A DNA stretch of 37,485 nucleotides from a virus, in the IMG/VR virus record IMGVR_UViG_3300000117_000001, positions 1-37,485 of that record, one strand, 5' to 3'. The notes beneath the pieces are model-generated. The model was given only the letters and a program-made list of their open reading frames with translations, did not search any database and was not told the origin of the DNA. Position 1 is the stretch's first letter. Each line of letters opens with the position of its first letter. Both the position numbers and the translations under genes were made by a program. Shown here piece after piece: positions 8,281-24,267 of this stretch.

Positions 8281-8283
8281 TAC

Positions 8284-9957: not shown

Positions 9958-9981
9958 GTTTTTCTCTCCTGTTTCAGCCTC

Positions 9982-9998: not shown

Positions 9999-10001
9999 TA
10001 T

Positions 10002-10532: not shown

Positions 10533-10590
10533 TTGCGCCACCTCTTGAGTATATTCCTAAGTGAAGGCCATTCGGCCCACATGTCGAATA

Positions 10591-11252: not shown

Positions 11253-11515
11253 TCCTCCTCTCCACAATAACATGCGCTCATAAATGGCCCATTTAGGTGT
11301 GAATAATCTCTGATGAAACACTCGCAAGTGTCACACCAATTACCTTCGGTCTGCAATTCGTCAAGCCATTCTGCTAGTCCCATCTCATACATGATTGGGT
11401 CTACCAATTTGCATACAATGGAAGGCGACCTCCCTACACCGAAGACAACTATGTCTTGGTAGCAACCGTCTAGCAAATCATCGTAAGCCTCGTATACTGC
11501 GTAACTGTAACTCAT
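11249..11515 (-). CDS. Small zinc-binding protein, 88 aa
   Basis: ATG 11515 with SD GGAAGGAGG. N-terminal Tyr-rich helix (SYSYAVYEAYDDLL), then CDTCECF near residue 61 and CYCGEEE at the C-terminus, giving a possible C-terminal zinc knuckle. Acidic end. ATGA-coupled to the next gene. Function unknown. Confidence 0.65.
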   Translation of the reverse strand: MSYSYAVYEAYDDLLDGCYQDIVVFGVGRSPSIVCKLVDPIMYEMGLAEWLDELQTEGNWCDTCECFIRDYSHLNGPFMSACYCGEEE

Positions 11516-11517
11516 GT

Positions 11518-11727
11518 TCAAGCCTCCTTCCATTCATTTAGAAGTCTAAGGACTTCTTTTTGGTCTTTCAGTTTGTCTAATTGGTCTGTGATTATACTGT
11601 GTATAATCGTAAGTGCGGTGGCCCTGTTAGGCTCATCCACAAAGTCCTCGATTACATCTCCGTTCTCAAGCATGTCACACATACTAAGCAAAATCTCTTC
11701 ATATTGTTCAATTGGCATTTTCATCAT
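11518..11727 (-). CDS. Acidic helical protein, ~69 aa
   Basis: The outer start at 11727 overlaps the upstream stop (ATGA); ATGs at 11724 and 11718 are in frame and give better distance to the GAGG SD. The sequence is amphipathic helix throughout (YEEILLSMCDMLENG; TIIHSIITDQLDKLKDQKE). Not recognised. Confidence 0.6.
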   Translation of the reverse strand: MMKMPIEQYEEILLSMCDMLENGDVIEDFVDEPNRATALTIIHSIITDQLDKLKDQKEVLRLLNEWKEA

Positions 11728-11945
11728 TCCTCTTCTGTTCGGTTCTTATCCTCTATAGGGGGGCCGCCACTACTTGAAGTTTTTCGTTTGACCCAGACCA
11801 TCTCGCCTGTGTCTCGCATCTGTATAGCGTCTAGCGTATGTTGTAGTGTCATATGCAGACCTATGCGACCATCATGTCGCACCATCTGTCTGTCTAATAC
11901 GGGAACCCATGTTCCCTGACGAGTTTCTAGCATTTCGTAAATCAT
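11724..11945 (-). CDS. Hypothetical protein, 73 aa
   Basis: ATG 11945 with TGGAGTGA 8 nt upstream; a TTG at 11972 would overlap the upstream gene by 20 nt. Residues 8-30 are beta-like (RQGTWVPVLDRQMVRHDG). The Pro/Gly-rich tail (SSSGGPPIED) is encoded by the stretch that also carries CCCCCTATA element copy c. Not recognised. Confidence 0.6.
   Translation of the reverse strand: MIYEMLETRQGTWVPVLDRQMVRHDGRIGLHMTLQHTLDAIQMRDTGEMVWVKRKTSSSGGPPIEDKNRTEEE
11753..11770 (-). promoter_or_regulatory. CCCCCTATA element, copy c
   Basis: Minus strand GTGGCGGCCCCCCTATAG inside the 3' end of the 11724-11945 gene, 26-43 nt upstream of the next start. The C-run and TATA match copies b and d. Because it is also coding, chance is a fair alternative. 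Confidence 0.3.
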
Positions 11946-11952
11946 TTGCGAA

Positions 11953-12189
11953 TCACTCCAAAGGATGCTCAATATCTTTGTCTCCGAGAACCCATCGCAA
12001 AGATTTTACAACGCCCTGTAGGGCTTTGTAATTTCTCATATGGTGCATACGCTCGGCCTTCTTGCATGTCTGTAGAGCAAGCAGGTGTCTGTTCTGCTTG
12101 CGCTCTGCTCGGTCTAGCATTCGCTCGATTTCAGACCAACTTCTCTCGTAAGAGAAGTGTTCAGAGTCTTGATGGTCGTTTAGTGTCAT
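11953..12189 (-). CDS. Basic coiled-coil protein, 78 aa
   Basis: ATG 12189 overlaps the upstream stop; AGGGTGA lies 7-8 nt upstream. Charged helices throughout (SWSEIERMLDRAERKQNRH; YKALQGVVKSLRWVLGD). Possible nucleic-acid-binding helical bundle. Not recognised. Confidence 0.6.
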   Translation of the reverse strand: MTLNDHQDSEHFSYERSWSEIERMLDRAERKQNRHLLALQTCKKAERMHHMRNYKALQGVVKSLRWVLGDKDIEHPLE

Positions 12190-12314
12190 TGTAATGTCAC
12201 CCTATCAAGAAGTCGCAATATAATTTCCATTTCATCAGCGTTCAACTGACTACTAACATTCCACTGAATACCGTAAGGCCTCATTCTTTCTCGTAAGTCT
12301 TGTATGTAACTCAT
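12186..12314 (-). CDS. Small hypothetical protein, 42 aa
   Basis: Fills the gap between two genes with ATGA overlaps at both ends (start 12314, stop 12186) and SD GAGAGGG. Sequence: a basic first half (LRERMRPYG) and an amphipathic helix (LNADEMEIILRLLDRV). The perfect fit into the overlap chain is the main support. Confidence 0.6.
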   Translation of the reverse strand: MSYIQDLRERMRPYGIQWNVSSQLNADEMEIILRLLDRVTLQ

Positions 12315-12616
12315 TCTGTACCCTCTCCTAGTGCGCCTAGTATGTCGTCATGTAGGGCCATGAAATTGTCGTACAATTTCTGACCTGTGCCTTTGATGCC
12401 GAAGTATTTCTTGACATCTGTGACTTTCCAATGTCTGTGGGGTTTCCAACCACGCACATAGCCACTAAGGTCTCTCTTAGAGACGATTAGATTCCAAATG
12501 GCTCTCCCCATAGGGGAACCATTAACGGCCATGACTTCGCCGCCATTCGCAAGTATTTCTGCTTCATTTCTCAATTCCTCCATAAATGGAGAGTCCATAT
12601 CGTATTTCATTTTCAT
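12311..12616 (-). CDS. Hypothetical protein, 101 aa
   Basis: ATG 12616 after SD GGGAGG. N-terminal acidic helix, then GGEVMAVNGSPMGRAIWN near residue 25 and a basic aromatic stretch (YVRGWKPHRHWKVTDVKKYF) near 53, followed by a C-terminal helix. Possibly nucleic-acid-binding. Not recognised. Confidence 0.65.
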   Translation of the reverse strand: MKMKYDMDSPFMEELRNEAEILANGGEVMAVNGSPMGRAIWNLIVSKRDLSGYVRGWKPHRHWKVTDVKKYFGIKGTGQKLYDNFMALHDDILGALGEGTE

Positions 12617-12619
12617 TCT

Positions 12620-12811
12620 TCATTCCTCCCTTTTTTCAACTGTGATACCACGCAGGGTATTAGGGAATGGTCTGCGAATGAATTGCCATAATTCATCCCA
12701 CTCACCATCCCATGCGTCTCTCTGGTGTAGGAGTGTGTCATCATCGTGAAAAACACGAATGATTCCTTCGTATAGTGTAATTCTGATACCTGCCGCACCT
12801 TTTTCCTTCAT
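12620..12811 (-). CDS. Hypothetical protein, 63 aa
   Basis: ATG 12811 with SD AGGTG and ATGA overlap with the upstream stop. Beta-like N-terminus (GIRITLYEGIIRVFHDD) and a Trp-rich middle (DAWDGEWDELWQFI). An alternative frame over the same bases (12613-12798) lacks the overlap and SD. Not recognised. Confidence 0.6.
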   Translation of the reverse strand: MKEKGAAGIRITLYEGIIRVFHDDDTLLHQRDAWDGEWDELWQFIRRPFPNTLRGITVEKREE

Positions 12812-13095
12812 TCTGAAGCACCTCCAATCGCAAAACCTCTTTCAATTATATGGACTGCTTCGACAGAAGTAAGCCACCCTTCGGGTTCTTCGTGTTCCCA
12901 ATACTTCAAGTCTGTGATACGCATCAATTCTAACAAGTGCTGCGGAGAGCCGTAGCCATTAGCAACAACTGAAAACTTTTCACCATCTTTCCTCTCTACA
13001 TGTATCTGCACAGGGGAGAGTCTATGTATATATGAAACGCAATCGGAGTTTTTCAGCATTCGTACAGTCTGCTCAAGCATGTCTGTCGTCATCAC
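12808..13095 (-). CDS. Hypothetical protein, 95 aa
   Basis: Two adjacent ATGs at 13095/13092; the start overlaps the stop of the upstream zinc microprotein. Alternating beta and helix (SPVQIHVERKDGEKFSVVAN; QHLLELMRITDLKYWE) and a C-terminal helix. Not recognised. Confidence 0.6.
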   Translation of the reverse strand: MMTTDMLEQTVRMLKNSDCVSYIHRLSPVQIHVERKDGEKFSVVANGYGSPQHLLELMRITDLKYWEHEEPEGWLTSVEAVHIIERGFAIGGASE

Positions 13096-13208
13096 TCATC
13101 ACCCCTTGCTACTCCACATGCTTTATCAAAGCACTCCGAGCATATACAGAAGTATAGTTTGTCTGTTTTGTTATCGCAATCTGCTAAAGCACAATACATG
13201 TAACTCAT
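13092..13208 (-). CDS. Cys-rich zinc microprotein, 38 aa
   Basis: ATG 13208 overlaps the upstream stop (TGATG). Six cysteines in 38 residues: C6, C11, then CICSEC (21-26) and C31. The pattern C-x4-C ... C-x-C-x2-C-x4-C would suit one zinc with spare ligands. Fits exactly between two genes. Confidence 0.65.
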   Translation of the reverse strand: MSYMYCALADCDNKTDKLYFCICSECFDKACGVARGDE

Positions 13209-13666
13209 CATTCATCACCTCCGGTGATTAGGTCGCCCAATTCTTTTGCGACAAGTTTCTGAACCTCTGCTACTGACAAAGGCTTAGTGCCTTTGGTAGA
13301 CCTGCCATTGTATGAGCGAGGCTTGAGTGAAGGTAGACCTGTAGGTCTAGATGCCGTAGTCCTGTTGTTTCGTCTAACTACTCTACGAGTAGGTCTATCT
13401 GCTATGTATGCTCTAACTGTAGGTATGTAACCCATCTTGCTACGCTTGTAAGCATTGATTTTATTCCATAACTCGGTTTCCTCTACATCACAGTACGCTG
13501 GTACTCTCATAAGAGTAACTTCTTCACTATCAGAACATGTTTCTAGAACCATGCACTTCTGTTCAAAGTCTCTCCATACATGTACCTTAGTCACGCCTTG
13601 TGCGTCAAATCTTACGGCGGCAACGCCAATCATTTCTCTCGTCGGTTTCATCTCATCGTCTTCCAT
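13208..13666 (-). CDS. Hypothetical protein with Arg-rich linker and GDL C-terminus
   Basis: 152 residues from ATG 13666 (SD ATAGGAG, good spacing; an ATG at 13675 sits on the SD). N-terminal half is beta-rich (MIGVAAVRFDAQGVTKVHVW), the middle is basic (RPTRRVVRRNNRTTASRP), and the end is EVQKLVAKELGDLI, nearly the same helix as in the 10591-11037 protein. I infer a common interaction tail. Function unknown. Confidence 0.65.
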   Translation of the reverse strand: MEDDEMKPTREMIGVAAVRFDAQGVTKVHVWRDFEQKCMVLETCSDSEEVTLMRVPAYCDVEETELWNKINAYKRSKMGYIPTVRAYIADRPTRRVVRRNNRTTASRPTGLPSLKPRSYNGRSTKGTKPLSVAEVQKLVAKELGDLITGGDE

Positions 13667-13678
13667 GTTTCTCATCTC

Positions 13679-13696
13679 CTATAGGGGGGTTTCTGG
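13679..13696 (-). promoter_or_regulatory. CCCCCTATA element, copy d
   Basis: Minus strand CCAGAAACCCCCCTATAG, in the only gene-free gap of this stretch (13667-13718), 12 nt before the ATG at 13666. The TATAGGAG end also supplies the SD, so its placement may reflect both roles. Confidence 0.4.
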
Positions 13697-13718
13697 TATT
13701 TAGTTTTACTCTATCTTT

Positions 13719-14531
13719 CTACTGCACTATTTCACGAGCGTGTCTGTAAGCCTCATATGTACGCTCATCAAACGCAGGTTCAACATCGTGGAAACGGTCA
13801 TCTTCTCTCTGTTCGGCTATTATTCTGCGAGTGTTGGTAAGTATAAACGCAGGTAGGGTACATGTAAGGAGTCTCCAAGACTCCTTTTTGTTGGTGACTA
13901 TGAGACTAAGGTCGGGTCTCTCTCCCTCTGGGAGAGTTTGCGGGTAAGTGTATTTCCAAGTGCTAACAGGAAAGTCAAATGCTTTGCATCCATCAGTAAA
14001 ATTAGCAAAGAATGTTTTAGCGAAGCGGTTCAAGTCCTCCGTGTCCGGCTCTGCCCTACCAAACTTCGCCCACGGAGACATATTTTCCCACCTCGTACAT
14101 AGGTTCAGAGAGTGGGTCTCCACATTCCAAGTGCTAGCATACGCTAGGATTCTAAAATCGCATTTATGGAGTCGAAGACTCGCAGAATAAGCCATATTTT
14201 GCACAGCATAAAATCGTGCGTTTTCGACTATATTGCATATAGCATTCATGTAAGGTCGGAATCTATACTGTTCTTTGAAAGTGAAGTAATGGTATTTCAT
14301 ATAATGATAGGCTTCACCTATCTCTTTTATGCAGAAGCCGAGATTTTTTAGTGTCATCATCATGCGCGTATTCCTATTATCGTAATTGTTGCGTAGCAAA
14401 TCATGATAATCTGTGTTATCTTCCAACTCTGTATAAACCTGCTTTCGCTCGTAATTAGCCCTAGTATCTTGGCAACCTGTGTAAGGTTCGCATCTACCGC
14501 ACCCTGTTGTGTACTCGTGAATTGATTTCAT
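13719..14531 (-). CDS. Hypothetical protein, 270 aa, Cys-rich N-terminus
   Basis: ATG 14531 has SD GGAGG; a TTG at 14600 would extend it by 23 residues but overlaps the membrane-protein gene. Residues 10-20 carry three Cys (GCGRCEPYTGCQ). The rest is aromatic-rich (Tyr, Trp, Phe): MKYHYFTFKEQYRFRPYM near residue 77 and WNVETHSLNLCTRWENM near 125. No catalytic motif seen. Contains strong internal hairpins (for example 13867-13882). Confidence 0.65.
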   Translation of the reverse strand: MKSIHEYTTGCGRCEPYTGCQDTRANYERKQVYTELEDNTDYHDLLRNNYDNRNTRMMMTLKNLGFCIKEIGEAYHYMKYHYFTFKEQYRFRPYMNAICNIVENARFYAVQNMAYSASLRLHKCDFRILAYASTWNVETHSLNLCTRWENMSPWAKFGRAEPDTEDLNRFAKTFFANFTDGCKAFDFPVSTWKYTYPQTLPEGERPDLSLIVTNKKESWRLLTCTLPAFILTNTRRIIAEQREDDRFHDVEPAFDERTYEAYRHAREIVQ

Positions 14532-14586
14532 TATTACTGCCTCCAATCTATTTTTCTGATTATTTTCTGGGAATCGAGAATTATTT

Positions 14587-14697
14587 TCAGAATAACTCAA
14601 TTCCTCCCATTATGTATGCGACTACGAGTATAGGTGCTAGGGGTAGCATGACTATGAGCATAGGGCCGAATGCCCATGTAGGTACTCGGACTCTCAC
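14587..14697 (-). CDS. Single-pass membrane microprotein, 36 aa
   Basis: GTG start at 14697 with SD GAGGTGG 5 nt upstream, directly after the upstream stop. After a short basic N-terminus (RVRV) comes one hydrophobic stretch of about 22 residues (PMLIVMLPLAPILVVAYIM), clearly a transmembrane segment. A second frame starting at the ATGA overlap (34 residues, Ser/His-rich) is less convincing. Possible small holin-like or membrane regulator. Confidence 0.55.
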   Translation of the reverse strand: MRVRVPTWAFGPMLIVMLPLAPILVVAYIMGGIELF

Positions 14698-15045
14698 TCA
14701 TACCACCTCATCATTCGCAAAGACTTCAAGCATGTGTCTGAAGGTTTCCGTAGGAAACATGTTTGCGATTCTTCTACCTTCGGTAGTCAAAAATTGGTCT
14801 ATCTTCATGTAGGTCTCCCATAGGTATGTACCGTGTAGGCTCTTGATGAAATCAAATGCACCCTGCGGAGGAGTAGTGCGTTCTTGTCTAAAGGTTTCTA
14901 TGAAACCTACAACATCGTAAGGGTGCTGATTTAGGATTCTAACCATACCCTCTTCTGTGAAGAGTGAAGAGATTTTATCCATAAAAGCCTCATCTAGTCT
15001 ACGACTAGGGTCATATCCTCCATCACCGTGTCCCATGTTACTCAT
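14698..15045 (-). CDS. Hypothetical helical protein, 115 aa
   Basis: ATGA-coupled to the upstream gene. N-terminal Gly-rich acidic segment (GHGDGGYDPSRR), then helices (MDKISSLFTEEGMVRILNQ; VVGFIETFRQERTT; MFPTETFRHMLEVFAND). Not recognised. Lies downstream of the ATPase/VWA pair in the same operon and may be part of that complex. Confidence 0.65.
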   Translation of the reverse strand: MSNMGHGDGGYDPSRRLDEAFMDKISSLFTEEGMVRILNQHPYDVVGFIETFRQERTTPPQGAFDFIKSLHGTYLWETYMKIDQFLTTEGRRIANMFPTETFRHMLEVFANDEVV

Positions 15046-15404
15046 GCTTCCACCCCCATAGGTGTCATGCTAGGAATCGTGATTTCCAATTGCGATTCGT
15101 CTAATTCCCAATGCTCAAGGTACGCTTGACCTGCTCGGTTAAGTGCCATGATGCAAGCCCTTGTATCATCAGCACATAGTAGGCTATCTACATGTATCTC
15201 ATGACTACCCATCCACCAAACCTGTAAGGTCTCGATGAAGTCACTGAAAGGTACTTTCAGTCTAAGACCGTTTCCTAGGAAACCGACTTCATGGGCCATT
15301 TGCGAATAAGTAGTTGCTAAAGCAACTGCCTGTTCTGTTCGTGCTATCATTTCTGCTAGGTCTTCGACCTTCATTTCTGTTTTACATGTGTGTTCGTCTG
15401 TCAT
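15042..15404 (-). CDS. Hypothetical protein, 120 aa
   Basis: ATG 15404 (SD GGGAGG, 10 nt) or GTG 15410 (overlapping the upstream stop). Mostly helical with a hydrophobic centre (DFIETLQVWWMGSHEI) and an acidic C-terminal half. The reading frame contains several perfect hairpins, for example ACTGAAAG-GTA-CTTTCAGT around 15244. Not recognised. Confidence 0.6.
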   Translation of the reverse strand: MTDEHTCKTEMKVEDLAEMIARTEQAVALATTYSQMAHEVGFLGNGLRLKVPFSDFIETLQVWWMGSHEIHVDSLLCADDTRACIMALNRAGQAYLEHWELDESQLEITIPSMTPMGVEA

Positions 15405-15406
15405 GT

Positions 15407-16354
15407 TCACTCATCCTCCCCTGTCCACTTTGCTAGTGCTTGCTTGACATCTTCGATGCCAGCCTTGATTGCCTCGGTAACTGTGTTGGAACCTGTGCCT
15501 GTTCTCATTACATGAGCCTTTTCTAGGCCAATACATCTTGCGATTTCTTTACCTTGACTTGGGTCAAGGTCTACGGCGCATCCTAATCCGCCACCGGCAT
15601 TTCCGTGAGCCGCCCACATACCGAATAAGCCGGTTCTAAAGAACCATGCAGAGCCAGCACTAGCCGCTATTGCCTCATTCAATCCCTCGTCAGCATCTTT
15701 GATGCGAACCGCCGCTAAAGTATTCGTAGTACCGTTTACGGCACTATTCAAGCATCCTCTTGAGTAGGCATAGGCCCAGACTTCTACAGCGAAGCCAGCC
15801 TGTGATAGTAGGTCAGCCGCCGCTAGTGCGACTGCTGTCCTAGCGAAGATGACATCAGCATCAGTACCACAATTTGCTCCCGTAGGGACTACAAGTGCTA
15901 CGGCTTCTACCGGAGCCGCCGATTTGCGAATTGTCCTACGGAACTTATCGACTCCGTTTAGCAAGCGAGTAGCATTCACACGGCCTCGGCTGTCTGACCA
16001 CATGAGTTTGCGCTTCAACATTGACAAGTCGATGGAATCGACTAGGTCGGACATCTTGTCACGAGTTTTTGCGATTGCTTTGTGGTCGTTCTCGACATAG
16101 TCGCCAAGTCGTGCGGCTACCTGTCCTCTAGATGTGACTTCACCTTTTAGGTCGGGGCGACCTATCCAATCTAAATCGACATGGCCGTCATTTAGAGGGT
16201 CGTAGCCCTTGAAATCGCTAGGCTTGAGTGAATTGACATAGTCGCCAGCATCCGCCGGTGTGTCTGATATGGTGAAATTGCATGAGAGTGCATCAGAGGT
16301 GTGATGCCCTAGGCGAGTACCAAAATCGTAAGATGTTACTTCAGTAACAGACAT
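15407..16354 (-). CDS. VWA-like protein (CobT-type partner of the AAA+ ATPase)
   Basis: 315 residues; ATG 16354 overlaps the ATPase stop (TGATG). The C-terminal 180 residues start with VALVVPTGANCGTDADV, then an Arg-containing helix and FAVEVWAYAYS, the order of a Rossmann-like VWA domain (strand, metal loop, helix, strand). The metal site lacks the usual D-x-S-x-S, so it is degenerate, as in phage VWA-like families often paired with a CobS-type ATPase (DUF7192 type). Likely substrate adaptor for the ATPase. Known family logic: MoxR/CobS ATPases work with VWA partners. Confidence 0.65.
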   Translation of the reverse strand: MSVTEVTSYDFGTRLGHHTSDALSCNFTISDTPADAGDYVNSLKPSDFKGYDPLNDGHVDLDWIGRPDLKGEVTSRGQVAARLGDYVENDHKAIAKTRDKMSDLVDSIDLSMLKRKLMWSDSRGRVNATRLLNGVDKFRRTIRKSAAPVEAVALVVPTGANCGTDADVIFARTAVALAAADLLSQAGFAVEVWAYAYSRGCLNSAVNGTTNTLAAVRIKDADEGLNEAIAASAGSAWFFRTGLFGMWAAHGNAGGGLGCAVDLDPSQGKEIARCIGLEKAHVMRTGTGSNTVTEAIKAGIEDVKQALAKWTGEDE

Positions 16355-17718
16355 CAAGCCGCACCTCCATTTGTCTGAAGGGCGGAGGATATGAAGGCAT
16401 CATCGAAGCCTACGGCTTTCAAGTCCTTGCGGTTCCAATCTCGTAGAGATAGTTTGCGAATGGTCTCCATATCATATCCTAGGATATGTTTCATTTTCTT
16501 GGCATTCAACATATGACGAGGGGATATGATACGGCCTACAAGCCCTGCCTTATCTGCTCTGTCACGAAGGTCATGATAGAAGGAAACTATCTCATCATCT
16601 CCGATGAGTTGGCGTTCAAATGCTCTGTCGTAGCCCCACAAAACAACTCCGTTGGCGAAGCGATTTAGAGTAGCACCGTCGAGCGTTTCTGCCGCACTGT
16701 ATGGGCCACGACCTTTACCTTGTCCCAAGGTGTTAGTTGTGACTAGGATAAACAAGTCCTCGGACTTCTTGATTACAGTACCATCGGGCATAGTCCATTC
16801 ATCGTTGGCTAAAGCCATGTTAGCCGCAACTGCTGTCCCACCGACTAGTCGGTCGAACTCATCCCAGCATAGCACTCCACCATCACGGAAGACCTTGACA
16901 GATTCAGAGATTCTATGGTTCTCGGAACCATCAGATACATTAGGAATCATTGGGCCGACTATGTCGGAAGGCATCATTTCATTGTGACATGAGAGAACAG
17001 CAAAACGGACAGAGTCCGGATTTGCGAATCCACCGGCTTCCACAGGAAGTGCCTTGAGAGTTTCAAAAATCTGTCTGGCAGCATGGGTCTTACCAGACCC
17101 AGCAGGGCCGGTTGCCATACAATTGACACGAATACGGCCCAAGTTTAATGCTTCATCGAAGCATGGGTGGACTAGTCCGACCTTGACTTCTTCAAAGTCA
17201 CCAAGAGGCTTGACGACAGTAGTACGAGGTAATGCTAAAGCATTTACCTTCTCTTCTAGGGTAGTATCTACTAGGTCAGTAAACTGTCCTAGGATATGAG
17301 GGCCGACTAATTCTGCTAAAGCAGCACCGGCAGGGTCTTTCTTGGCTAAGGCATTAGGGGCAAAAGGATTGAAATCCTCGGTTTTCTGTTTTCTAGGCAT
17401 TTTCTTAGTCTCCTTTGGAGGGGTGTCTCTTGGTACTTCTTCACCAGAGGTGAAGGCTTTGAATTGCGAGTTTGACATTGTTTCAACAATGAGTTGCTCG
17501 GTTTCTGGCTTTAGGTGATAATCCACATCTACACAGTGGGTGTGAATCCAATTTGCTTTTCTAGATTCCGTAGGAATCTTGACTTGAGCAACTGAACACT
17601 TCGGAGAAGTGCCGTTGATTGCTCCGCCACAAACCTTACAGGTTGAGTCGAAGTTTGCATTCTTGGTCTTAAGACCAATCTCTCGTAGTATCTTTGCTTT
17701 CGGGGTTTGCTTGCTCAT
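16354..17718 (-). CDS. MoxR/CobS-like AAA+ ATPase
   Basis: 454 residues, ATGA overlap upstream. Residues 20-55 hold CKVCGG and HTHC, a possible zinc module. Walker A GPAGSGKTHAA near residue 208; Walker B GGVLCWDEFDRL near 280; sensor-1-like LVTTNTLG near 326; arginine-finger region TLNRFANGV near 349. This matches CobS/MoxR ATPases that remodel protein complexes; phages often carry such an ATPase next to a VWA protein. Target here unknown: host enzyme, replisome or virion assembly are all possible. The gene is rich in short perfect hairpins. Confidence 0.8.
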   Translation of the reverse strand: MSKQTPKAKILREIGLKTKNANFDSTCKVCGGAINGTSPKCSVAQVKIPTESRKANWIHTHCVDVDYHLKPETEQLIVETMSNSQFKAFTSGEEVPRDTPPKETKKMPRKQKTEDFNPFAPNALAKKDPAGAALAELVGPHILGQFTDLVDTTLEEKVNALALPRTTVVKPLGDFEEVKVGLVHPCFDEALNLGRIRVNCMATGPAGSGKTHAARQIFETLKALPVEAGGFANPDSVRFAVLSCHNEMMPSDIVGPMIPNVSDGSENHRISESVKVFRDGGVLCWDEFDRLVGGTAVAANMALANDEWTMPDGTVIKKSEDLFILVTTNTLGQGKGRGPYSAAETLDGATLNRFANGVVLWGYDRAFERQLIGDDEIVSFYHDLRDRADKAGLVGRIISPRHMLNAKKMKHILGYDMETIRKLSLRDWNRKDLKAVGFDDAFISSALQTNGGAA

Positions 17719-17942: not shown

Positions 17943-18350
17943 GTTTATATTCTCCTCATCTACGATGGGAGAATTAAACTGTATTCTAAGAGAGTACAAT
18001 ATACTACTTCGTAGTATAAAATCAGAATCTAAGAATAAGAATGAGAGCATCTTATTCTTAGATTTGCCTATGCACATGTATAGGTATGTGTGTATAGGAC
18101 TATTTTCTAGCCCTTTAGGGCTAGGATTTAGCAAATCTATATTAGCAACTTCCTTTGAAAGGAAGCCATAGGCACATGTATGTGTGTCTAATTTTCTGCT
18201 AGTTTCAGTCAGAATGTCGTGACATTCTGCTTTGTTAGCAAAAGTGTTTCCAATATGTGTAATGTATATCATGTATGTTCTATTAGTGTCTCTCATCTCA
18301 TTTTTCCGATTGTAATCATAAGGGACTAGATTATAATCAGAATGGAACAT
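17943..18350. other. Non-coding, hairpin-rich start of the palindrome island
   Basis: About 400 bases without a convincing gene, although one minus-strand frame happens to stay open. Holds inverted repeats such as CTAAGAATAAGA / TCTTATTCTTAG (about 18029-18061), TATACTAC-TTC-GTAGTATA (about 18000-18018) and ATTATAATC / GATTATAAT at 18330-18364. The 5' leader of the 17715-17942 gene is its left end. Confidence 0.6.
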
Positions 18351-18578
18351 TCTTGATTATAATCGTAAAATACTATGGTTTTTACTTTGAGAATAGAGTA
18401 TACAGATACTCTATTCGCAAAGCCACCTGCACACCTGCGCGCTGGGTTTAGATAAACCCCCCAAAGGGCGGAAACCCCCTACGGGGTTTTCCTTCCGCAG
18501 TCCATCGGTTTTGCTATTTCCCCTTTCCACACATGAGGCGTAGGCCCACATGGGCGAGGGCGCACACCCCTGCAAGAT

Positions 18579-18593
18579 GCTTGATTTTCTTAG
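18579..18593. repeat. Dispersed 15-bp repeat, copy 1
   Basis: GCTTGATTTTCTTAG; an exact direct copy lies at 19690-19704. Both are preceded within about 45 nt by CCCACATG and a C-rich stretch, so a larger unit seems duplicated. Confidence 0.7.
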
Positions 18594-18889
18594 TTTTATT
18601 TTTACACTCTATCTAAAAAGTATACTTTTTGATATAGTGTACGGGAATGAGGTTCAAGGTAGTGGGATAGCCTTTTGAAATTAGAGTGCCGAGAGATTGA
18701 CGAGAGACACCATAACTCGGACTTTACTTTTTGCACCGACCTTGATTTAGGGTTCCCTAAAAATAACTCGTAGAGTTATTGTTGGCGGGTGTCCGTACAC
18801 ACGAGGGCATGTGCGAGGGTGTCTGGATTTCTTGCAGAAATCTTCCGGATTTAGAGAATAGTATTGGAGAATACTATTCCCGAAATCGA

Positions 18890-19060
18890 CGCATGTGCGA
18901 GCAAGCGAGCGTACACCCGTAGGTGTATGCGTGTGCGTGTAAGCGCACATACGCATATGTGTGCGTATGTGTAGGCACACATGTAGGTGTGCGTAGGCAC
19001 ACCTGCGAGTGCATGTGTAGGCACATGCCTATGGGTGTACGCATATGTGCGTACAGGTCT
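18890..19060. repeat. Alternating purine-pyrimidine (Z-DNA-prone) tract
   Basis: Long runs of GT, CA and CG steps such as GTATGCGTGTGCGTGT and GCACATACGCATATGTGTGC. Smaller similar tracts lie at 19140-19200 and 19780-19820. Such runs favour left-handed DNA under torsion and are rare in compact viral genomes. Confidence 0.6.
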
Positions 19061-19208
19061 AAAACTATCGGAGATAGTTTCGCAAAAATTAAGGAATAAG
19101 TATTATTCAATCTTATTCCTAATTTCAGCATACAGGGGTACTCGCACACACATGCTTGCATGTGTGTAGGTACATGTGCGAGCGCACATGTATGTGTATA
19201 TGATTCAG

Positions 19209-19228
19209 AAATCTAACTAGTTAGATTT
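19209..19228. repeat. 20-bp perfect palindrome centred on CTAG
   Basis: AAATCTAACTAGTTAGATTT, both halves fully complementary with no loop. One of ten such palindromes in the island. Confidence 0.9.
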
Positions 19229-19242
19229 TCAGTCATTTGAAA

Positions 19243-19283
19243 TTAAAAAAAGCCCCTTAGTGAATCGAGATTCACTAAGGGGC
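19243..19283 (-). terminator. Intrinsic terminator of the 19327-19548 gene
   Basis: On the minus strand: a 15-bp perfect stem (arms 19269-19283 and 19252-19266, GCCCCTTAG core) followed by a run of seven U. Classic Rho-independent form, about 45 nt after the stop. Confidence 0.85.
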
Positions 19284-19326
19284 AAAGAGTGACGAAGTCA
19301 CTAAACAAGAAGACTATGGTGATAAA

Positions 19327-19548
19327 TCACCATAGAGGCTCTAAGCCAACAAACTTCATGTATTCATTCAGAAGGAGACCTTCTGGGATGGGGTTTTTCT
19401 TACCATTTGTTGCTCTGATTGCTTCAGCAATCATGGTACTAGTGGTACTTTGGATTCCAACAATTTCATTGTTGTTTCCGATATATTCATGGATTCTCAA
19501 CAATTTGTTGGTCAGTCTTTTTTGTCGGCGGTCTTCGGCTTTACTCAT
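19327..19548 (-). CDS. Small basic hypothetical protein, 73 aa
   Basis: ATG 19548 with TGAGGA 8 nt upstream, and its own intrinsic terminator downstream. Basic helix at the N-terminus (EDRRQKRLTNKLLRIHEY), Thr/Ser-rich middle (GIQSTTSTMIAEAIRATNG), then KKNPIPEGLLLNEYMKF. Possibly DNA-binding. The coding sequence itself contains hairpins (CAACAAT-TTC-ATTGTTG; GATTGCT-TC-AGCAATC). Confidence 0.65.
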   Translation of the reverse strand: MSKAEDRRQKRLTNKLLRIHEYIGNNNEIVGIQSTTSTMIAEAIRATNGKKNPIPEGLLLNEYMKFVGLEPLW

Positions 19549-19824
19549 CTGTATTCCTCATTTTCAATGGGAATACAGAGAGTATTTTCGCATACATGTA
19601 AAAACTCCCAGAGTTTTTCGCAAATTAGAATAGGATTCCCCTAATTCCTATTCTTATTTGGGGCCACCCACATGAGCGCACCAGCCCCCGCTTGATTTTC
19701 TTAGTCCTTGGACTACAGAAAATATACGCACGAACCGAAGGTTCTTGCGTAGGAAAAATAAAGTCAAGACTTTATTTTCGCATGTACGCATACATGCGTG
19801 TGTACGCACATGTGCGCGCGAGAT
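19549..19824. other. Non-coding hairpin-rich gap
   Basis: No gene seen. Contains AATAAAGTC-AA-GACTTTATT (about 19756-19775), GAACC-GAA-GGTTC inside a longer ACGCA/TGCGT stem (19725-19750), CGCATGTA-CGCA-TACATGCG (19780-19800) and a second copy of GCTTGATTTTCTTAG (19690-19704; first copy 18579-18593). Confidence 0.65.
19690..19704. repeat. Dispersed 15-bp repeat, copy 2
   Basis: Exact copy of the element at 18579-18593, same orientation, again after CCCACATG and GCGCAC. Confidence 0.7.
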
Positions 19825-19864
19825 AAAAAAAAGCCCCACTAGTCCTCTAGAGGACTAGTGAGGC
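19825..19864 (-). terminator. Intrinsic terminator of the 19885-21441 unit
   Basis: Minus strand: stem with a 24-bp perfect palindromic core (19837-19860, centre TCTAGA), extended by GCC/GGC with one mismatch, then eight U (19825-19832). Lies 20 nt after the stop of the zinc microprotein. Confidence 0.85.
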
Positions 19865-19870
19865 AAAATC

Positions 19871-19890
19871 CTTTGAAACTAGTTTCAAAG
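19871..19890. repeat. 20-bp perfect palindrome centred on CTAG
   Basis: CTTTGAAACTAGTTTCAAAG, overlapping the stop codon of the 19885-20055 gene. Loopless. Confidence 0.9.
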
Positions 19891-20055
19891 TGTACCGATA
19901 ATTATTTTTCTACCTTCTCTGAAGGTAGCGATAATTTGCGATTTATCTGCTAAGGGAACCTTAGCACAGTAGAAGTGGTTTACCACTTCTATACTTCCAT
20001 CTTGAAGTCGTTCTACTTGTAGAACGGCTTCACATCTAGGGCATCTAATTGTCAT
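19885..20055 (-). CDS. Zinc-ribbon microprotein, 56 aa
   Basis: ATG 20055 with strong SD TAGGAG 7-8 nt upstream. CPRC at residues 5-8 and a Cys at 30 (HFYCAK); with nearby His this could form a zinc site. Beta-like middle (VLQVERLQDGSIEVV) and a basic tail (REGRKIIIG). Last gene of a three-gene leftward unit ending in a strong terminator. Confidence 0.7.
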   Translation of the reverse strand: MTIRCPRCEAVLQVERLQDGSIEVVNHFYCAKVPLADKSQIIATFREGRKIIIGTL

Positions 20056-20085
20056 TCTATCATCTCCTAAACTTCGTTTATTTCC

Positions 20086-20364
20086 TCATAGGTTTTCCAT
20101 TACTAATTCGACTATGTCGAATCGGTCAATCCATTCCTCCAAATCTTCGTAGAAGATTTGATGCAATTTTACCGGCATCTCAAAGTCATAAATGACTTCG
20201 TTAATCTTGGCTATCATATAGCCAATAAGCCATTCTCTATTAGAGCCGAAGGCTCTAACTCTATTCAAGTCCATAGACTTGAATACCTTGTGGTATTCTA
20301 TATCCCAATCATCTAAAGATGATTGCGATAATTTGCTATACAAATTATATTTTACATATTCCAT
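20086..20364 (-). CDS. Hypothetical protein, 92 aa
   Basis: ATG 20364, SD AGGAGAG. Tyr- and acid-rich helical sequence (YVKYNLYSKLSQSSLDDW; KLHQIFYEDLEEWIDRFD). Not recognised. The gene is dense in hairpins: AAATCTTC-GTA-GAAGATTT, TAGAGCC-GAA-GGCTCTA, TCAAGTC-CATA-GACTTGA. Confidence 0.65.
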   Translation of the reverse strand: MEYVKYNLYSKLSQSSLDDWDIEYHKVFKSMDLNRVRAFGSNREWLIGYMIAKINEVIYDFEMPVKLHQIFYEDLEEWIDRFDIVELVMENL

Positions 20365-20406
20365 TTCAATTCTCTCCTAAATCTCCGATTTACTTTTCAT
20401 TGTTCC

Positions 20407-21441
20407 TCAATTCTTGGTTCCTACGGAACCATCTCTCTCTTCTGCTTGGATTTTCAATCCAAATCTAAAATCACAAACTTTCCCTTGCAGGGAATCTTTG
20501 ACTGTCATTTCTTCGATACTGTAAGTATCGCCATTTCTGTCTCTGACAGAATACATCAGATTAGTTTTTGAAAGTCTTTCGACTTTCACTCCACAATCTC
20601 CGATTAACTCTTCATGGCTTTGCCATGCTATCATAGAACCAATTAGTTCATTTCGACAAAGTCGAAGGTCTTCTAATTCTTCTTCGATTTCTTCTTCGTT
20701 ACATCTAAAGATGTATTCCAAATCCCATGCTTCGTAGAAGCATCTCAAAGCATCTCCATCAAAAAGCAAGGCAAAGCCTTGAAGGAAGTTTAGCAAATCA
20801 ACATCTTCGATGTTCAATTCTTTAGCAATTTGTAGAGAATCTACAATGAATGCCGGAGGCATTGAATAACCGAAGGTTGTCAATTTTTCATAACCCAAAT
20901 CTTCGATTTGTAGGTAATTTCCAATGTCATATTCAATCAGAGATTGAAGTATCTTGGAAATATCATTTCCAAAGAATGTTTGAACAGACTTATCGAAGAT
21001 AAGGTCTTCAGACCAATTTGGATTTGCTTCAGCAAATAATTCCATAGTCATTCTCAACGAAGTTGGCTTTCTTAGTTTCTTGGAAACCAAGACTCTGTCT
21101 TGTCCTTCCAGAATATACTCGAAGATACTGACGAAGTCAGTGGTTGTCAATTCATCGAATCTATCTTCGATAGAACACAAGTTTTTCTCTCCAATCAGTA
21201 AACTGATGTCAACTAATTTTGAACCACAACCGAAGGTTGTCCTTAAAGCCTTCGAGAAGGCTTTCAGAGTAGGTTCAAAGAGGTCGAAGACCCCTTTGTT
21301 GCTAATCTTGTAGAAAGGAATGATAAACTCGTTTATCATGTTGTCCTTCGACATCTTCAAGAAGTCCTCGACTTCTTGGTTTCTGGTTTCAGCCTCCAAA
21401 GTTGGAGTGGTTTTACTAGGTTCTATAATATCTTTTATCAT
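20407..21441 (-). CDS. Hypothetical protein, 344 aa, in hairpin-saturated DNA
   Basis: ATG 21441 with SD AGGAGG 8 nt upstream. Acidic, Leu/Phe-rich, helical protein; an EEEIEEELEDLRLCRNE stretch near residue 250 is probably coiled coil and the last 70 residues look beta-rich (NGDTYSIEEMTV). No family recognised. At least 22 perfect hairpins with stems of 6-8 bp and loops of 3-4 nt occur in its 1.0 kb, far above chance, so the DNA or mRNA structure is under a constraint other than coding. Probably one transcript with the next two genes. Confidence 0.7.
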   Translation of the reverse strand: MIKDIIEPSKTTPTLEAETRNQEVEDFLKMSKDNMINEFIIPFYKISNKGVFDLFEPTLKAFSKALRTTFGCGSKLVDISLLIGEKNLCSIEDRFDELTTTDFVSIFEYILEGQDRVLVSKKLRKPTSLRMTMELFAEANPNWSEDLIFDKSVQTFFGNDISKILQSLIEYDIGNYLQIEDLGYEKLTTFGYSMPPAFIVDSLQIAKELNIEDVDLLNFLQGFALLFDGDALRCFYEAWDLEYIFRCNEEEIEEELEDLRLCRNELIGSMIAWQSHEELIGDCGVKVERLSKTNLMYSVRDRNGDTYSIEEMTVKDSLQGKVCDFRFGLKIQAEERDGSVGTKN

Positions 21442-21497
21442 TAGTTTTACCTCCTTCACTTCGTTCAGGAGTAAAACAATGTAAAAGTATTAGAGAT

Positions 21498-21519
21498 AGT
21501 AGAAATCTAGATTTCTACT
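21498..21519. repeat. 22-bp perfect palindrome centred on CTAG
   Basis: AGTAGAAAT then CTAG then ATTTCTACT; no loop, no mismatch. Confidence 0.9.
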
Positions 21520-21578
21520 AACAATTTCCGAATTATGTAATATGGTATATTGATACCATATTACTTAATTTACATAAG

Positions 21579-21596
21579 AAATCTACTAGTAGATTT
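21579..21596. repeat. 18-bp perfect palindrome centred on CTAG
   Basis: AAATCTACTAGTAGATTT; loopless, followed directly by a TTTGCGA motif. Confidence 0.9.
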
Positions 21597-21663
21597 TGCG
21601 AAAAGTAGAGATAGGAATTGAAGAATCCTATCTCTTCTTTAACGCGAGATGTTGGTTTTTCCT

Positions 21664-21687
21664 TTAAGTCTATCTAGATAGACTTAA
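21664..21687. repeat. 24-bp perfect palindrome centred on CTAG
   Basis: Left half TTAAGTCTATCT, right half its exact complement; loopless. Confidence 0.9.
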
Positions 21688-21848
21688 TCTGATTGGTCAG
21701 CAAATCTTCCTTAATACGGTAATTTATCGGCTTTTAGTGCTGTTTTATGTTGTCTTTAGACAACATACTTCCGGACTATGTCAAGATAACTTTTGTATTA
21801 GTTTTCTTTCTGGTTTTTGGGCTAAAGCCCAACTATCACAAAGAGAAC

Positions 21849-21870
21849 ATTATTTTCCTAGGAAAATAAT
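21849..21870. repeat. 22-bp perfect palindrome centred on CTAG
   Basis: Left half ATTATTTTCCT, right half AGGAAAATAAT; loopless. Confidence 0.9.
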
Positions 21871-21900
21871 TCTTAGAGAAGAAAGCCGATTTATTGTGCG

Positions 21901-21930
21901 AACTAATCTCAAACTAGTTTGAGATTAGTT
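21901..21930. repeat. 30-bp perfect palindrome centred on CTAG
   Basis: Left half AACTAATCTCAAACT, right half its exact complement; loopless. Confidence 0.9.
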
Positions 21931-21984
21931 TCATATAATAAATAGCAAAAAATTGTTGGAGAAGATTGGCCCTTTATTAGAAAG

Positions 21985-22008
21985 AGGAGGAGGACTAGTC
22001 CTCCTCCT
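21985..22008. repeat. 24-bp perfect palindrome centred on CTAG
   Basis: Left half AGGAGGAGGACT, right half AGTCCTCCTCCT; loopless and purine/pyrimidine-segregated. Confidence 0.9.
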
Positions 22009-22018
22009 AACTATTAAT

Positions 22019-22062
22019 AAAAAAAAAAAAGGCCCTACTCCCCCCAAAGGGGGAGTAGGGCC
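22019..22062 (-). terminator. Strong intrinsic terminator of the 22088-22216 gene
   Basis: Minus strand: 14-bp GC-rich stem (22031-22044 with 22049-22062; arm GGCCCTACT plus C-run) followed by twelve U (22019-22030). Textbook Rho-independent terminator 25 nt after the stop of the 42-residue gene. Confidence 0.9.
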
Positions 22063-22087
22063 AAAGATAATTCTTCCGAAGGAAGAA

Positions 22088-22216
22088 TCAATATCCTTGT
22101 GCTTTAGCACAAGGAGGGCAGAGCCTTTCTGCTAGTCCGTCATCTCCGAAGGAGATGACTACATCGTTGTTGTTCGTTTTTGTTTGGCAATTCCATTGAC
22201 AGCACTTTTCTGACAT
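22088..22216 (-). CDS. Zinc-binding microprotein, 42 aa
   Basis: ATG 22216; no clear SD. Two Cys clusters, KCCQWNC (residues 4-10) and LCPPC (32-36), fit a four-Cys zinc ribbon like the other microproteins here. A strong terminator follows directly. Its coding DNA contains two hairpins (about 22071-22089 and 22091-22113). Isolated in the palindrome island, so this is a moderate call. Confidence 0.5.
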   Translation of the reverse strand: MSEKCCQWNCQTKTNNNDVVISFGDDGLAERLCPPCAKAQGY

Positions 22217-22440
22217 CGAAGAGAACTACGGTGGTCGATTACTTAGAGTTTCCGTGTTTATGCTTCGTTGTTCCGTAGGAACAATGAAGCAAGGGGTTTT
22301 AGGGCCCCCTAAATCGTCGGATTTCCAGAACCGGACACCCTTATATCTTCGATATAAGGGTGGTTTTCGGCAAACCAAAATAATTCTGTTACCCTATCTT
22401 CGATAGGGTAACAGGTAAGGGTTGAGATTTTCGAGATTTT

Positions 22441-22583
22441 GGTTGCCCTAAATCTTCTTCTCCTTTAGGAGGAGAAGAAGATTATTGATTCTATGTGGAC
22501 ATCTTCGATGTCCACATAGGGCAAAATCCAGCAACTTTTTTTTTGAACCCCGTAGGGGTTCAATGAGGAGATTTAGGGCAACC
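22441..22583. ncRNA. Candidate multi-branched structured RNA/DNA element
   Basis: A 14-bp closing stem (22441-22454 with 22570-22583) encloses a stem at 22449-22484, a 13-bp stem with loop TTC at about 22491-22519 and TTGAACCCC-GTA-GGGGTTCAA at about 22543-22562. The first inner stem competes with part of the closing stem, as in switching RNAs. Expression is not shown; strand unknown. Confidence 0.3.
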
Positions 22584-22601
22584 TAAAACTCCAAATCGCA
22601 G

Positions 22602-22635
22602 AAATAATTCTGAGAACTAGTTCTCAGAATTATTT
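22602..22635. repeat. 34-bp perfect palindrome centred on CTAG
   Basis: Left half AAATAATTCTGAGAACT, right half its exact complement, no loop. Longest perfect palindrome in the window. Confidence 0.95.
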
Positions 22636-22653
22636 TGAGCGTAACTAACTAGA

Positions 22654-22686
22654 GGTAATTATACCATCTTCGATGGTATAATTACC
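22654..22686. repeat. 15-bp stem with TTC loop
   Basis: GGTAATTATACCATC, loop TTC, then the exact complement. No mismatch. Confidence 0.95.
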
Positions 22687-22700
22687 GTAAAAAATCCTAC

Positions 22701-22730
22701 AAAAATCGGAGAGTCGGCGAGCCGACTCTC
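22701..22730 (-). terminator. Intrinsic terminator of the terL operon
   Basis: Minus strand: GAGAGTCGGC, short loop TC, GCCGACTCTC (22709-22730), followed by CGAUUUUU. Lies 35-65 nt after the terL stop at 22765. Confidence 0.75.
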
Positions 22731-22764
22731 GCCCAGCACCACGAGCAATTTTTTAATTTTTTTT

Positions 22765-24267
22765 TCAAAAGAAAGTGACATACTTTCCGCCACTCTTTCT
22801 AGTGGGCCTACCACTTTTCTGATTAGGCTTGCCCCATTTATTCATATCTACAGATGAACCCATCATGGGGATGTCGCCGGTTACATTCTTAAATTGGTCT
22901 ACCGCATGAGCAAGGGCCATAACTATATCATTGTGTTTGCCTTTGTCTACTATGTCACCATTCTTCCAAGCATGAGATTCTAACTCTAGCAAAAGTACAC
23001 TGACTATCTTGCGAGTCTTGTCATCTCCGTAAGGGAAAATAATTCTACCCTGCTCAAACCATGTCCTTAGTCTTGTCATTAGACCTTGCTTCAAAGTCTT
23101 ATTGCTAACTTTACTTTGCTTTACATTAACAGTTAGTCCCTTCTGCCTAAGTAGACTTTCGTAAAGATGTTGAAATCCAGCAGATTCAAATGCAAACAAA
23201 GGTCTACTGTATTTATCATTCCATACTGCTATCTCATCTATCTGTTTAGCAGGGGGGAAATCGTTTTTTCGCCAGATGTTTACTAATCGCAAATTACCAT
23301 CTTCGTCTTTTCGCATACAGACCATAACAGAGTAATCTTGCCCTATACCGTGACTTGGGTCAAAACCTATGACATAGTCATTGTCATGCACCTTCTCATT
23401 TTCAAGTATACTGTGCATATCTAGATTCTTGCGAGTAAGTGTAGTGGGGAATACAGCAGAGTCATCATCTACTACTTTACATAGATATTCTTGCGTAAAT
23501 GCTAATTCGCCTATTGCATCTCTCTGTTCTAGCAGAAACTCAATAGGTCTTTCTTCGGGCCATAGACATGTAGGCTCTACATTATCTGGGTCGCTGCGCC
23601 ACTCATCATAATTTAAGATTGAACCTTTCACCCAAGTCTGCCACTTCTTATTACTTAGCATCTCAGTATGATACAAATCATTCATTGACATAGGAGTACC
23701 TACACAATATATCGAAGTACCGGGGGATAGCATAGGTGTTAATTTCTTGCGAAACCATTGTTGAACATAATCATATGACATATCGTTCTGGTCATCTAGT
23801 ACATCGTCTAGTATAATAGCAGCCGGGTGTTCTCCACGAATACCGCTACCTACGGATGTTGCCTTTATCCATGAACCATTTGTTAGATGCAATTCTAACT
23901 TGTTACCTTTCTTTGGGTCAAGCATACGAGATAACTCTGGATGAGTTTTCAAATCTTGACGAATCTCTTCAAGACGATTAGCAGCCAAATCTTTGTTGCT
24001 TGAAAATAACCACATCTTCAGAGGCTTACCTCGCCACCTTTCAAAAAGTAGCATATGCAAGGCTTTAATTCTAAGAGTAGTAGATTTACTATGGTCTCTT
24101 GGTGCTATGATGCAAACTCTATGAACCTGTGCGTCGCCTCTTTCTCCATACAGGTCTAGCCATTCACCTATATGCTCACCCCAATTATAACCTAGCCATT
24201 CATAGAAATGTCTGACATCATACTTAGACCTCTCAAGATGAAGGGCAGTCATTATTCTTGATGACAT
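22765..24267 (-). CDS. terL: Terminase large subunit
   Basis: 500 residues. ATPase: Walker A-like APRDHSKST near residue 54 (the phage variant of the P-loop), Walker B AAIILDDVLDDQ near 150. Nuclease: VIGFDPSHGIGQDYSV near 296 gives the first catalytic Asp; GKHNDIVMALAHA near 451 gives the last. These are the two parts of the DNA-packaging motor, which pumps DNA into the prohead through the portal and cuts it. ATG 24267 overlaps the upstream stop (TAATG). It is on the opposite strand from the other head genes. Confidence 0.95.
   Translation of the reverse strand: MSSRIMTALHLERSKYDVRHFYEWLGYNWGEHIGEWLDLYGERGDAQVHRVCIIAPRDHSKSTTLRIKALHMLLFERWRGKPLKMWLFSSNKDLAANRLEEIRQDLKTHPELSRMLDPKKGNKLELHLTNGSWIKATSVGSGIRGEHPAAIILDDVLDDQNDMSYDYVQQWFRKKLTPMLSPGTSIYCVGTPMSMNDLYHTEMLSNKKWQTWVKGSILNYDEWRSDPDNVEPTCLWPEERPIEFLLEQRDAIGELAFTQEYLCKVVDDDSAVFPTTLTRKNLDMHSILENEKVHDNDYVIGFDPSHGIGQDYSVMVCMRKDEDGNLRLVNIWRKNDFPPAKQIDEIAVWNDKYSRPLFAFESAGFQHLYESLLRQKGLTVNVKQSKVSNKTLKQGLMTRLRTWFEQGRIIFPYGDDKTRKIVSVLLLELESHAWKNGDIVDKGKHNDIVMALAHAVDQFKNVTGDIPMMGSSVDMNKWGKPNQKSGRPTRKSGGKYVTFF

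What the first reader, a model, noticed from the sequence alone, without database searches (positions are those of the whole stretch)
17943..22730. Palindrome island: nearly 5 kb built from short perfect inverted repeats
Non-coding and coding parts alike carry a perfect stem-loop about every 30-50 nt. Stem sequences differ each time, so the conserved property is the ability to fold, not a word. Loops fall in a small set: TTC/GAA, GTA/TAC, AA/AAA/TTTA, CTAG. I know of no described viral region like this. Ideas: structured RNAs, cruciform arrays, an assembly or recombination zone, or perfecting of repeats by polymerase template switching.
Basis: seen in the sequence. Interest (0 to 1): 0.92.

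Follow-up and report, generated by a model that had tools for sequence, protein, structure and literature searches.

The report
Virus region packed with DNA hairpins
In a clade of uncultured marine viruses (probably of archaea), about 5 kb right behind the packaging-motor gene is written almost entirely as small perfect DNA hairpins, even inside genes; their two arms change together as relatives diverge, which suggests that one arm is copied onto the other and makes the region a natural test bed for how hairpins arise and persist.

Summary
The interval holds 106 non-overlapping perfect inverted repeats with stems of at least 6 bp, about one per 46 nt. Stems of at least 8 bp number 8-16 per kb against 0-0.5 in shuffles. 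The window belongs to a 64-kb tailed virus with archaeal-type PolB and clamp loader. About 18 relatives carry the same island behind terL; a sister group lacks it. The island has a sharp edge just after terL, at a conserved 43-nt site, and hairpin density decays over 8-15 kb away from terL. With the protein held fixed, synonymous codons spell hairpins (AAA gene 15 versus 2.6). G·U pairs are not favoured on either strand, so the constraint acts on DNA, not RNA. Arms change together: 133 two-sided Watson-Crick changes versus 19 two-sided non-pairing ones, even between genomes about 99% identical. Best explanation: DNA mini-hairpins whose arms are copied onto each other by short-range template switching, in a stretch exposed from a fixed site. 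Mechanism and the site's role are inferred. Main rival: selection for supercoil-extruded mini-hairpins like phage N4 promoters. Nearest published parallel: nematomorph mitochondrial coding palindromes. Function is unproven.

The parts
22765..24267 (-). terL (large terminase subunit); free of hairpin excess; its 3' end is the sharp edge of the island
   Evidence: Pfam Terminase_6C E 4.8e-6; 2 IRs observed vs 1.7 in synonymous shuffles
22698..22740 (-). conserved ~43-nt site GGTG(G/C)TTGGCG-N~26-TTTTTGG just after the terL stop; the middle is a perfect hairpin in island viruses (22709-22730). Candidate terminator, packaging, replication or nicking site (role inferred)
   Evidence: found after terL with fixed spacing in most island and islandless relatives; the window copy is a variant (GGTGCTGGGCG...TTTTTGTAG)
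17943..22730 (.). hairpin island: ~106 perfect inverted repeats of stem >=6 bp, one per ~46 nt
22300..22730 (.). non-coding zone 1: long perfect hairpins with 6-17 bp stems
   Evidence: alignment with L002, L004, L005
22491..22519 (.). hairpin with a fresh concerted change: CTAT-GTGGAC-ATC..GAT-GTCCAC-ATAG here, CTAT-ACCCCCT-ATC..GAT-AGGGGGT-ATAG in L002 (~99% identical), ACCCCT/AGGGGT in L004
22088..22216 (-). 42-aa zinc-ribbon-like ORF written largely in hairpins; conserved in relatives, in opposite orientation in L045 and L048
22031..22062 (-). 14-bp hairpin followed by T12 on the transcript strand (intrinsic-terminator-like)
21607..21635 (-). type B composite hairpin: ..RGA-TTCNNNAAT-TCY.. 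loop, next to TTTTCGC/TTTGCGA and a second hairpin; 1-4 copies in most islands
20407..21459 (-). island ORF, 350 aa, fast-evolving modular protein without known family; 28 hairpins vs 3.0 expected with the protein fixed
   Evidence: AlphaFold2 model too poor to use (pLDDT 49.6)
20086..20364 (-). 92-aa ORF, 8 hairpins vs 1.8 expected; in L004 the same ORF is longer by ~290 bp that carry 7 more hairpins
19252..19283 (-). 15-bp hairpin followed by T7 (terminator-like)
18391..18416 (.). type A hairpin (11-bp GAATAGAGTAT stem, 4-nt loop); orthologous type A loops are found inverted between relatives (CAGT/ACTG, GTTG/CAAC)
16354..17718 (-). AAA_5 ATPase gene: 15 hairpins vs 2.6 in synonymous shuffles (z 6.6); start of the declining tail
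3000..16350 (-). declining tail of hairpin excess across the leftward gene block

Best explanation
The island is a stretch of viral DNA that is repeatedly single-stranded or torsionally stressed, starting at a fixed conserved site just behind terL and extending one way. Small DNA hairpins with easily folded centres (5'-C..G-3' or T..A closure; GNA, TTTA or CTAG centres) form there. When a polymerase stalls or an end folds back, it copies one arm using the other as template (short-range template switching). This perfects near-palindromes, rewrites both arms together and occasionally inverts a loop or a segment. Shown: the density, polarity and edge; DNA-level (not RNA) pairing; synonymous codons spelling hairpins; paired and block changes at very low divergence; a conserved site at the edge. 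Inferred: template switching as the copying step, single-strand exposure, and the site as its starting point. Some hairpins (type A/B composites, terminator-like hairpins) probably have functions of their own.
For: (1) Perfection: 633 perfect stems >=7 bp against 30 stems with one internal mismatch. (2) Strand symmetry: one-sided changes give G.T 32 vs A.C 29; pairs just outside stems G.T 123 vs A.C 126; so no RNA-type tolerance. (3) Both arms change together: 133 two-sided Watson-Crick changes vs 19 two-sided non-pairing. Substitution density inside hairpins is 8.6%, outside 10.0%, so stems turn over about as fast as spacers yet stay perfect. (4) Same-step changes: L002 vs window (~99% identical) differ in one hairpin by five paired changes plus a paired 1-bp indel with no broken pair; L033 vs L035 show 3 paired changes against 3 broken pairs; L005 vs L007 (99.8%) show a paired cluster. 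(5) L045 vs L063: no substitution outside one hairpin loop and one rearranged G+C-rich repeat in ~5 kb, yet that loop is exactly reverse-complemented, GTTG to CAAC. (6) A gradient from one edge in four genomes, flat in two islandless ones, visible with proteins held fixed. (7) A conserved site at the edge. (8) Published precedent that template switching creates and maintains stems (PMC8794818) and that quasi-palindrome mutations depend on transcription and replication direction (PMC3820800).
Against: Loop inversions are not in excess overall (3-nt loops 1 vs 2.9 expected; only 4-nt loops exceed, 3 vs 0.4), so the interstrand form of template switching is rare at best. The new block in the window hairpin has no source elsewhere in the window, so where novel stem sequence comes from is unexplained. 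Some low-divergence differences (L005 vs L007, where L007 is closer to L056) could be recombination between strains. Template switching is general, so it does not by itself explain why only this region and this clade are affected. Hairpins keep their positions over deep divergence, which selection would also explain.
Confidence: 0.52

Rival explanations
1. The hairpins are selected: supercoil-extruded DNA mini-hairpins (or cruciforms) serve as many binding sites or torsion sinks for replication, packaging or transcription, as the three early promoters of phage N4 do. Stem sequence is free as long as it pairs; loop and closure matter. Paired evolution is then compensation.
For: 88% of loops have 5'-Y..R-3' closure; C-GNA-G loops, the N4 extrusion requirement (PMC4496689) and the known ultra-stable DNA mini-hairpin loop (cited in PMC6479982), lie preferentially on the template strand for terL-direction transcription (68:32, p 4e-4 ignoring relatedness). 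Hairpin positions are kept while stems turn over completely. Composite hairpins have conserved loops. A different iterated word occupies the same place in islandless relatives, so the place may be a cis-acting region.
Against: A smooth decline over 8-15 kb and ~15 short hairpins in a conserved ATPase gene are hard to maintain by selection on each; block changes and paired indels at ~1% divergence without intermediates; substitution rate in stems is near that of spacers. No N4-type virion RNA polymerase was recognised among the proteins scanned, but not every large protein was scanned.
Confidence: 0.3
2. The island encodes structured RNA: an ordered, double-stranded transcript that resists nucleases, regulates expression or acts as a decoy.
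For: The array runs in the direction of transcription from just after terL; some hairpins end in T-runs like terminators; strong predicted folding.
Against: No excess of G.U over A.C in stems, stem edges or one-sided changes; no Rfam match; near-total absence of imperfect stems is not how RNA stems evolve.
Confidence: 0.1
3. Insertion of mobile palindromic elements (like Rickettsia palindromic elements or MITEs).
For: Hairpins inside reading frames; L004 carries an extra ~290-bp coding stretch with 7 hairpins.
Against: Stem sequences are unrelated to each other; the short conserved parts are limited to loops and two composite types.
Confidence: 0.03
4. Artefact of assembly or whole-genome amplification.
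For: Contigs often end inside the island; a loop inversion could in principle be an assembly or amplification error.
Against: About 18 relatives from many separate metagenomes have the island at the same place; reading frames stay open across it; the same viruses have no hairpin excess in the structural and replication genes.
Confidence: 0.02

Closest known systems
Coding palindromes of nematomorph mitochondrial genomes (Mikhailov et al. 2019, PMC6649704)
   Same: Many perfect inverted repeats inside real protein genes; almost no imperfect ones; authors propose an arm-conversion mechanism such as template switching.
   Different: There arms are long (mean 43 bp, up to 142), 110 repeats of at least 15 bp in four genomes, spacers average 37 bp. 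Here stems are mostly 6-17 bp, loops 0-4 nt of restricted type, ~20 per kb, in one polar island of a virus.
Template-switch mutations that create and maintain hairpins (Monttinen and Loytynoja 2022, PMC8794818)
   Same: Paired multi-base changes, stem perfection, loop inversion.
   Different: Described as scattered events in RNA genes under RNA selection; here a dense local array without RNA-type pairing.
Phage N4 early promoters (supercoil-extruded template-strand mini-hairpins; PMC4496689)
   Same: Short stems with C-G closure and GNA loops, stem sequence largely free, DNA-level.
   Different: N4 has three such promoters with conserved flanks and a dedicated virion RNA polymerase; here there are about a hundred hairpins with many other loops, in coding sequence, and no such polymerase was recognised.
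Rickettsia palindromic elements
   Same: Palindromes that sit in frame inside genes (mentioned in PMC6649704).
   Different: Those are homologous copies of an inserted element; these stems are unrelated.

Membership tests
Concertedly evolving coding palindromes (nematomorph type) | Perfect arms with no tail of imperfect repeats | tested here: met
   633 perfect vs 30 one-mismatch stems
Concertedly evolving coding palindromes (nematomorph type) | Inside functional, conserved protein genes | tested here: met
   AAA gene 15 vs 2.6, orf350 28 vs 3.0 with protein fixed
Concertedly evolving coding palindromes (nematomorph type) | Long arms (mean tens of bp) | tested here: not met
   stems 6-17 bp in the window
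Template-switch-maintained hairpins | Multiple paired changes in one stem in one step | tested here: met
   L002 vs window, L033 vs L035; strain recombination not fully excluded
Template-switch-maintained hairpins | Loop inversions enriched | tested here: inconclusive
   clear single cases but no overall excess
N4 vRNAP-type hairpin promoters | C-G closure and GNA loop on the template strand | tested here: inconclusive
   100 of ~660 hairpins have C-TNC-G or C-GNA-G; GNA on the template strand 68:32
N4 vRNAP-type hairpin promoters | Virion-encapsidated single-subunit RNA polymerase encoded | tested here: inconclusive
   none among the proteins scanned with Pfam; several large proteins of the right half were not scanned
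Structured RNA (large viral non-coding RNAs) | G.U tolerated on the transcribed strand; Rfam family | tested here: not met
Rickettsia-type palindromic elements | Homologous element copies at different sites | tested here: not met
   stems unrelated between sites; only loops of type A/B hairpins are shared
Archaeal tailed viruses (Caudoviricetes) | terL, portal, archaeal-type PolB and clamp loader | tested here: met
   Pfam (portal below its curated cut-off); PolB best hits in named phages are haloviruses at 22-23% identity; host not tested

The most novel reading that the evidence does not exclude
A viral system that keeps a region as an array of DNA mini-hairpins: a unidirectional process from one conserved site (nicking, packaging cut, replication or transcription start) leaves a strand exposed, and hairpin folding plus arm copying writes perfect palindromes into everything downstream, genes included. 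This would be a new class of polar, self-propagating sequence structure, possibly used for extruded-hairpin function.
Probability: 0.35. Interest if true: 0.93.

Novelty: new variant of a known kind. Interest (0 to 1): 0.83.

Why it matters
How perfect stems arise and are kept through compensatory change without broken intermediates is an open question in molecular evolution. Here dozens of hairpins, in many related genomes at 1-30% divergence, with islandless sisters as controls, make it directly testable. The polarity from one conserved site offers a handle on which DNA process drives it. It is also a case where a DNA-level constraint rewrites protein-coding sequence on a large scale. I found no description of such a viral region in the searched library.

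Tried and rejected
RNA structure: rejected as main cause by strand symmetry of G.T vs A.C and no Rfam hit. Shared repeat words as the basis: stems unrelated; only spacer words (TTTGCGA, AAATCGCA) and loops of composite types recur. Regular spacing: hairpin centres 27-136 nt apart (10-90%), no period. Loop inversion as the dominant mode: not in excess overall. Source of the new stem block in 22491-22519: none found in the window. Islands in unrelated viruses through the type B loop word: the 15-mer scan found only chance hits plus known members. Host by provirus: no relative of terL in 84,980 bacterial and archaeal species genomes. Structure of orf350: pLDDT 49.6, not searched further. Close relatives among named phages: none for orf350 or portal.
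Full report
What was checked. The window is bases 1-37485 of a 63,998-bp virus record. Its genes include terL, portal, a calcineurin-like phosphoesterase, an AAA_5 ATPase and, beyond the window, family B DNA polymerase, an RFC-like clamp loader, an ERCC4-HHH nuclease, a PD-(D/E)XK nuclease and a DNA methylase. PolB's nearest named relatives are haloviruses at 22-23% identity. This is a tailed virus with archaeal-type replication genes; the host was not determined.

The hairpin density is real. In 17.9-22.74 kb there are 106 non-overlapping perfect inverted repeats of stem >=6 bp. Stems >=7 bp number 22-27 per 1.5 kb against 0.5-0.9 in shuffles, z about 19-22, and the structural half of the genome is at the shuffled level. 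Stem sequences differ throughout. Loops are restricted: 88% are closed by 5'-C..G-3' or 5'-T..A-3' pairs versus about half in shuffles.

It is polar. The excess begins 35 bp past the terL stop codon (in the direction of transcription) and declines leftward. Per 2 kb, counts run 46, 41, 19, 12, 14, 16, 8, 9 against 2-4 expected. Three related genomes repeat this pattern and two islandless relatives are flat. Coding constraint does not explain it. With each protein and its codon usage fixed, orf350 has 28 hairpins versus 3.0 expected, the AAA gene 15 versus 2.6, genes at 10-16 kb about 2 to 8 times expectation, and terL 2 versus 1.7.

Relatives. A terL search gave 51 loci. About 18 of those with sequence behind terL have the island at the same place; others (L015, L017, L027-L029, L038, L040, L043, L044) do not. 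By PolB, full-length island genomes are 69-96% identical to ours and islandless ones 59-61%, so the trait is clade-specific. Islandless relatives keep terL and a larger AAA gene in the same order with about 1.4 kb between them. That spacer carries a different iterated word, AAACGATGGACTGCGAGCC and variants, on both strands.

At the edge lies a conserved site. Within about 65 nt after the terL stop, most relatives of both kinds have GGTG(G/C)TTGGCG, about 26 nt, then TTTTTGG. A strict form of the word occurs once each in three of the six genomes scanned, plus one weaker match. In island viruses the middle is a perfect hairpin; in the others it is an imperfect one. I infer a functional DNA site (terminator, packaging, replication or nicking); its role is untested.

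DNA, not RNA. If the transcript were selected to pair, G.U on the transcript strand should exceed A.C. It does not: 2 vs 7 inside stems, 32 vs 29 among one-sided changes, 123 vs 126 just outside stems. Perfect stems outnumber one-mismatch stems 633 to 30.

Arms evolve together. In nine pairwise alignments there are 133 two-sided Watson-Crick changes and 19 two-sided non-pairing ones. About 6 of the former would be expected if arms changed independently (my estimate from the 8.6% substitution rate). Substitution density in hairpins (8.6%) is close to that outside (10.0%). At about 99% identity, the window and L002 differ in one hairpin by a five-pair block plus a paired 1-bp indel and no broken pair; L033 and L035 show three paired and three broken. 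L045 and L063 differ over ~5 kb by one exactly inverted 4-nt loop, a 22-bp deletion and one rearranged G+C-rich repeat, with no other substitution. Across all orthologous hairpins, loop inversion is in excess only for 4-nt loops (3 vs 0.4) and not for 3-nt loops, so I do not claim it as the main mode. L005 vs L007 may be strain recombination.

Other parts. A 42-aa zinc-ribbon-like ORF (22088-22216, minus) is conserved in sense orientation in most islands and reversed in L045 and L048. orf350 and orf92 are conserved across the island clade but modular and fast-evolving, without PHROG match (and no Pfam match for orf350). Composite hairpins recur with a conserved 9-nt loop TTCNNNAAT followed by TTTGCGA and a second hairpin. 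Two hairpins followed by T-runs look like terminators.

Mechanism. The polarity with one sharp edge, strand symmetry, perfection, near-spacer substitution rate and same-step paired changes fit arm-to-arm copying by short-range template switching in DNA exposed from a fixed site. Template switching is known to make and keep stems (PMC8794818), and quasi-palindrome mutations depend on transcription and replication direction (PMC3820800). Selection for extruded mini-hairpins is the main rival. N4 promoters need C-G closure and a G..A loop on the template strand with otherwise largely free stem bases (PMC4496689), and here GNA loops favour the template strand 68:32. The two are compatible: copying could supply and selection keep. 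The gradient through conserved genes is what tips me to the mutational account.

Known and new. The nearest published case is nematomorph mitochondrial coding palindromes (PMC6649704), also perfect, also inside genes, also ascribed to conversion, but far longer and sparser. Searches of the paper library found no viral counterpart; subscription papers are mostly missing from it.

Noticed in passing
L017:11600-13150, L028:11590-12760: Islandless relatives carry about ten copies of a word AAACG(A/T)(T/G)NNACTG(C/A)GAGCCT on both strands in the same spot behind terL; a degraded copy lies in the window near 18505.
   Followed up: partly
window 18890-19200 and 19779-19830: Alternating purine-pyrimidine tracts (ACACATGCGTGTGCG...), Z-DNA-like, shared as a zone by several islands.
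   Followed up: no
window 22088-22216 (-); L045, L048: 42-aa zinc-ribbon-like gene is inverted relative to its neighbours in L045 and L048.
   Followed up: partly
L004:4650-4940: About 290 bp of extra coding sequence in the orf92 homologue, with seven new hairpins.
   Followed up: partly
window 15407-17718 (-): AAA_5 ATPase next to a 316-aa protein that resembles a MoxR/VWA-type pair (phrog_249 'porphyrin biosynthesis' match for the ATPase; VWA likeness is my impression).
   Followed up: no
L045 island position ~1013 (hairpin GAATAAGGATT): 4-nt loop GTTG versus CAAC in L063 with otherwise almost identical islands: a clean loop inversion.
   Followed up: yes
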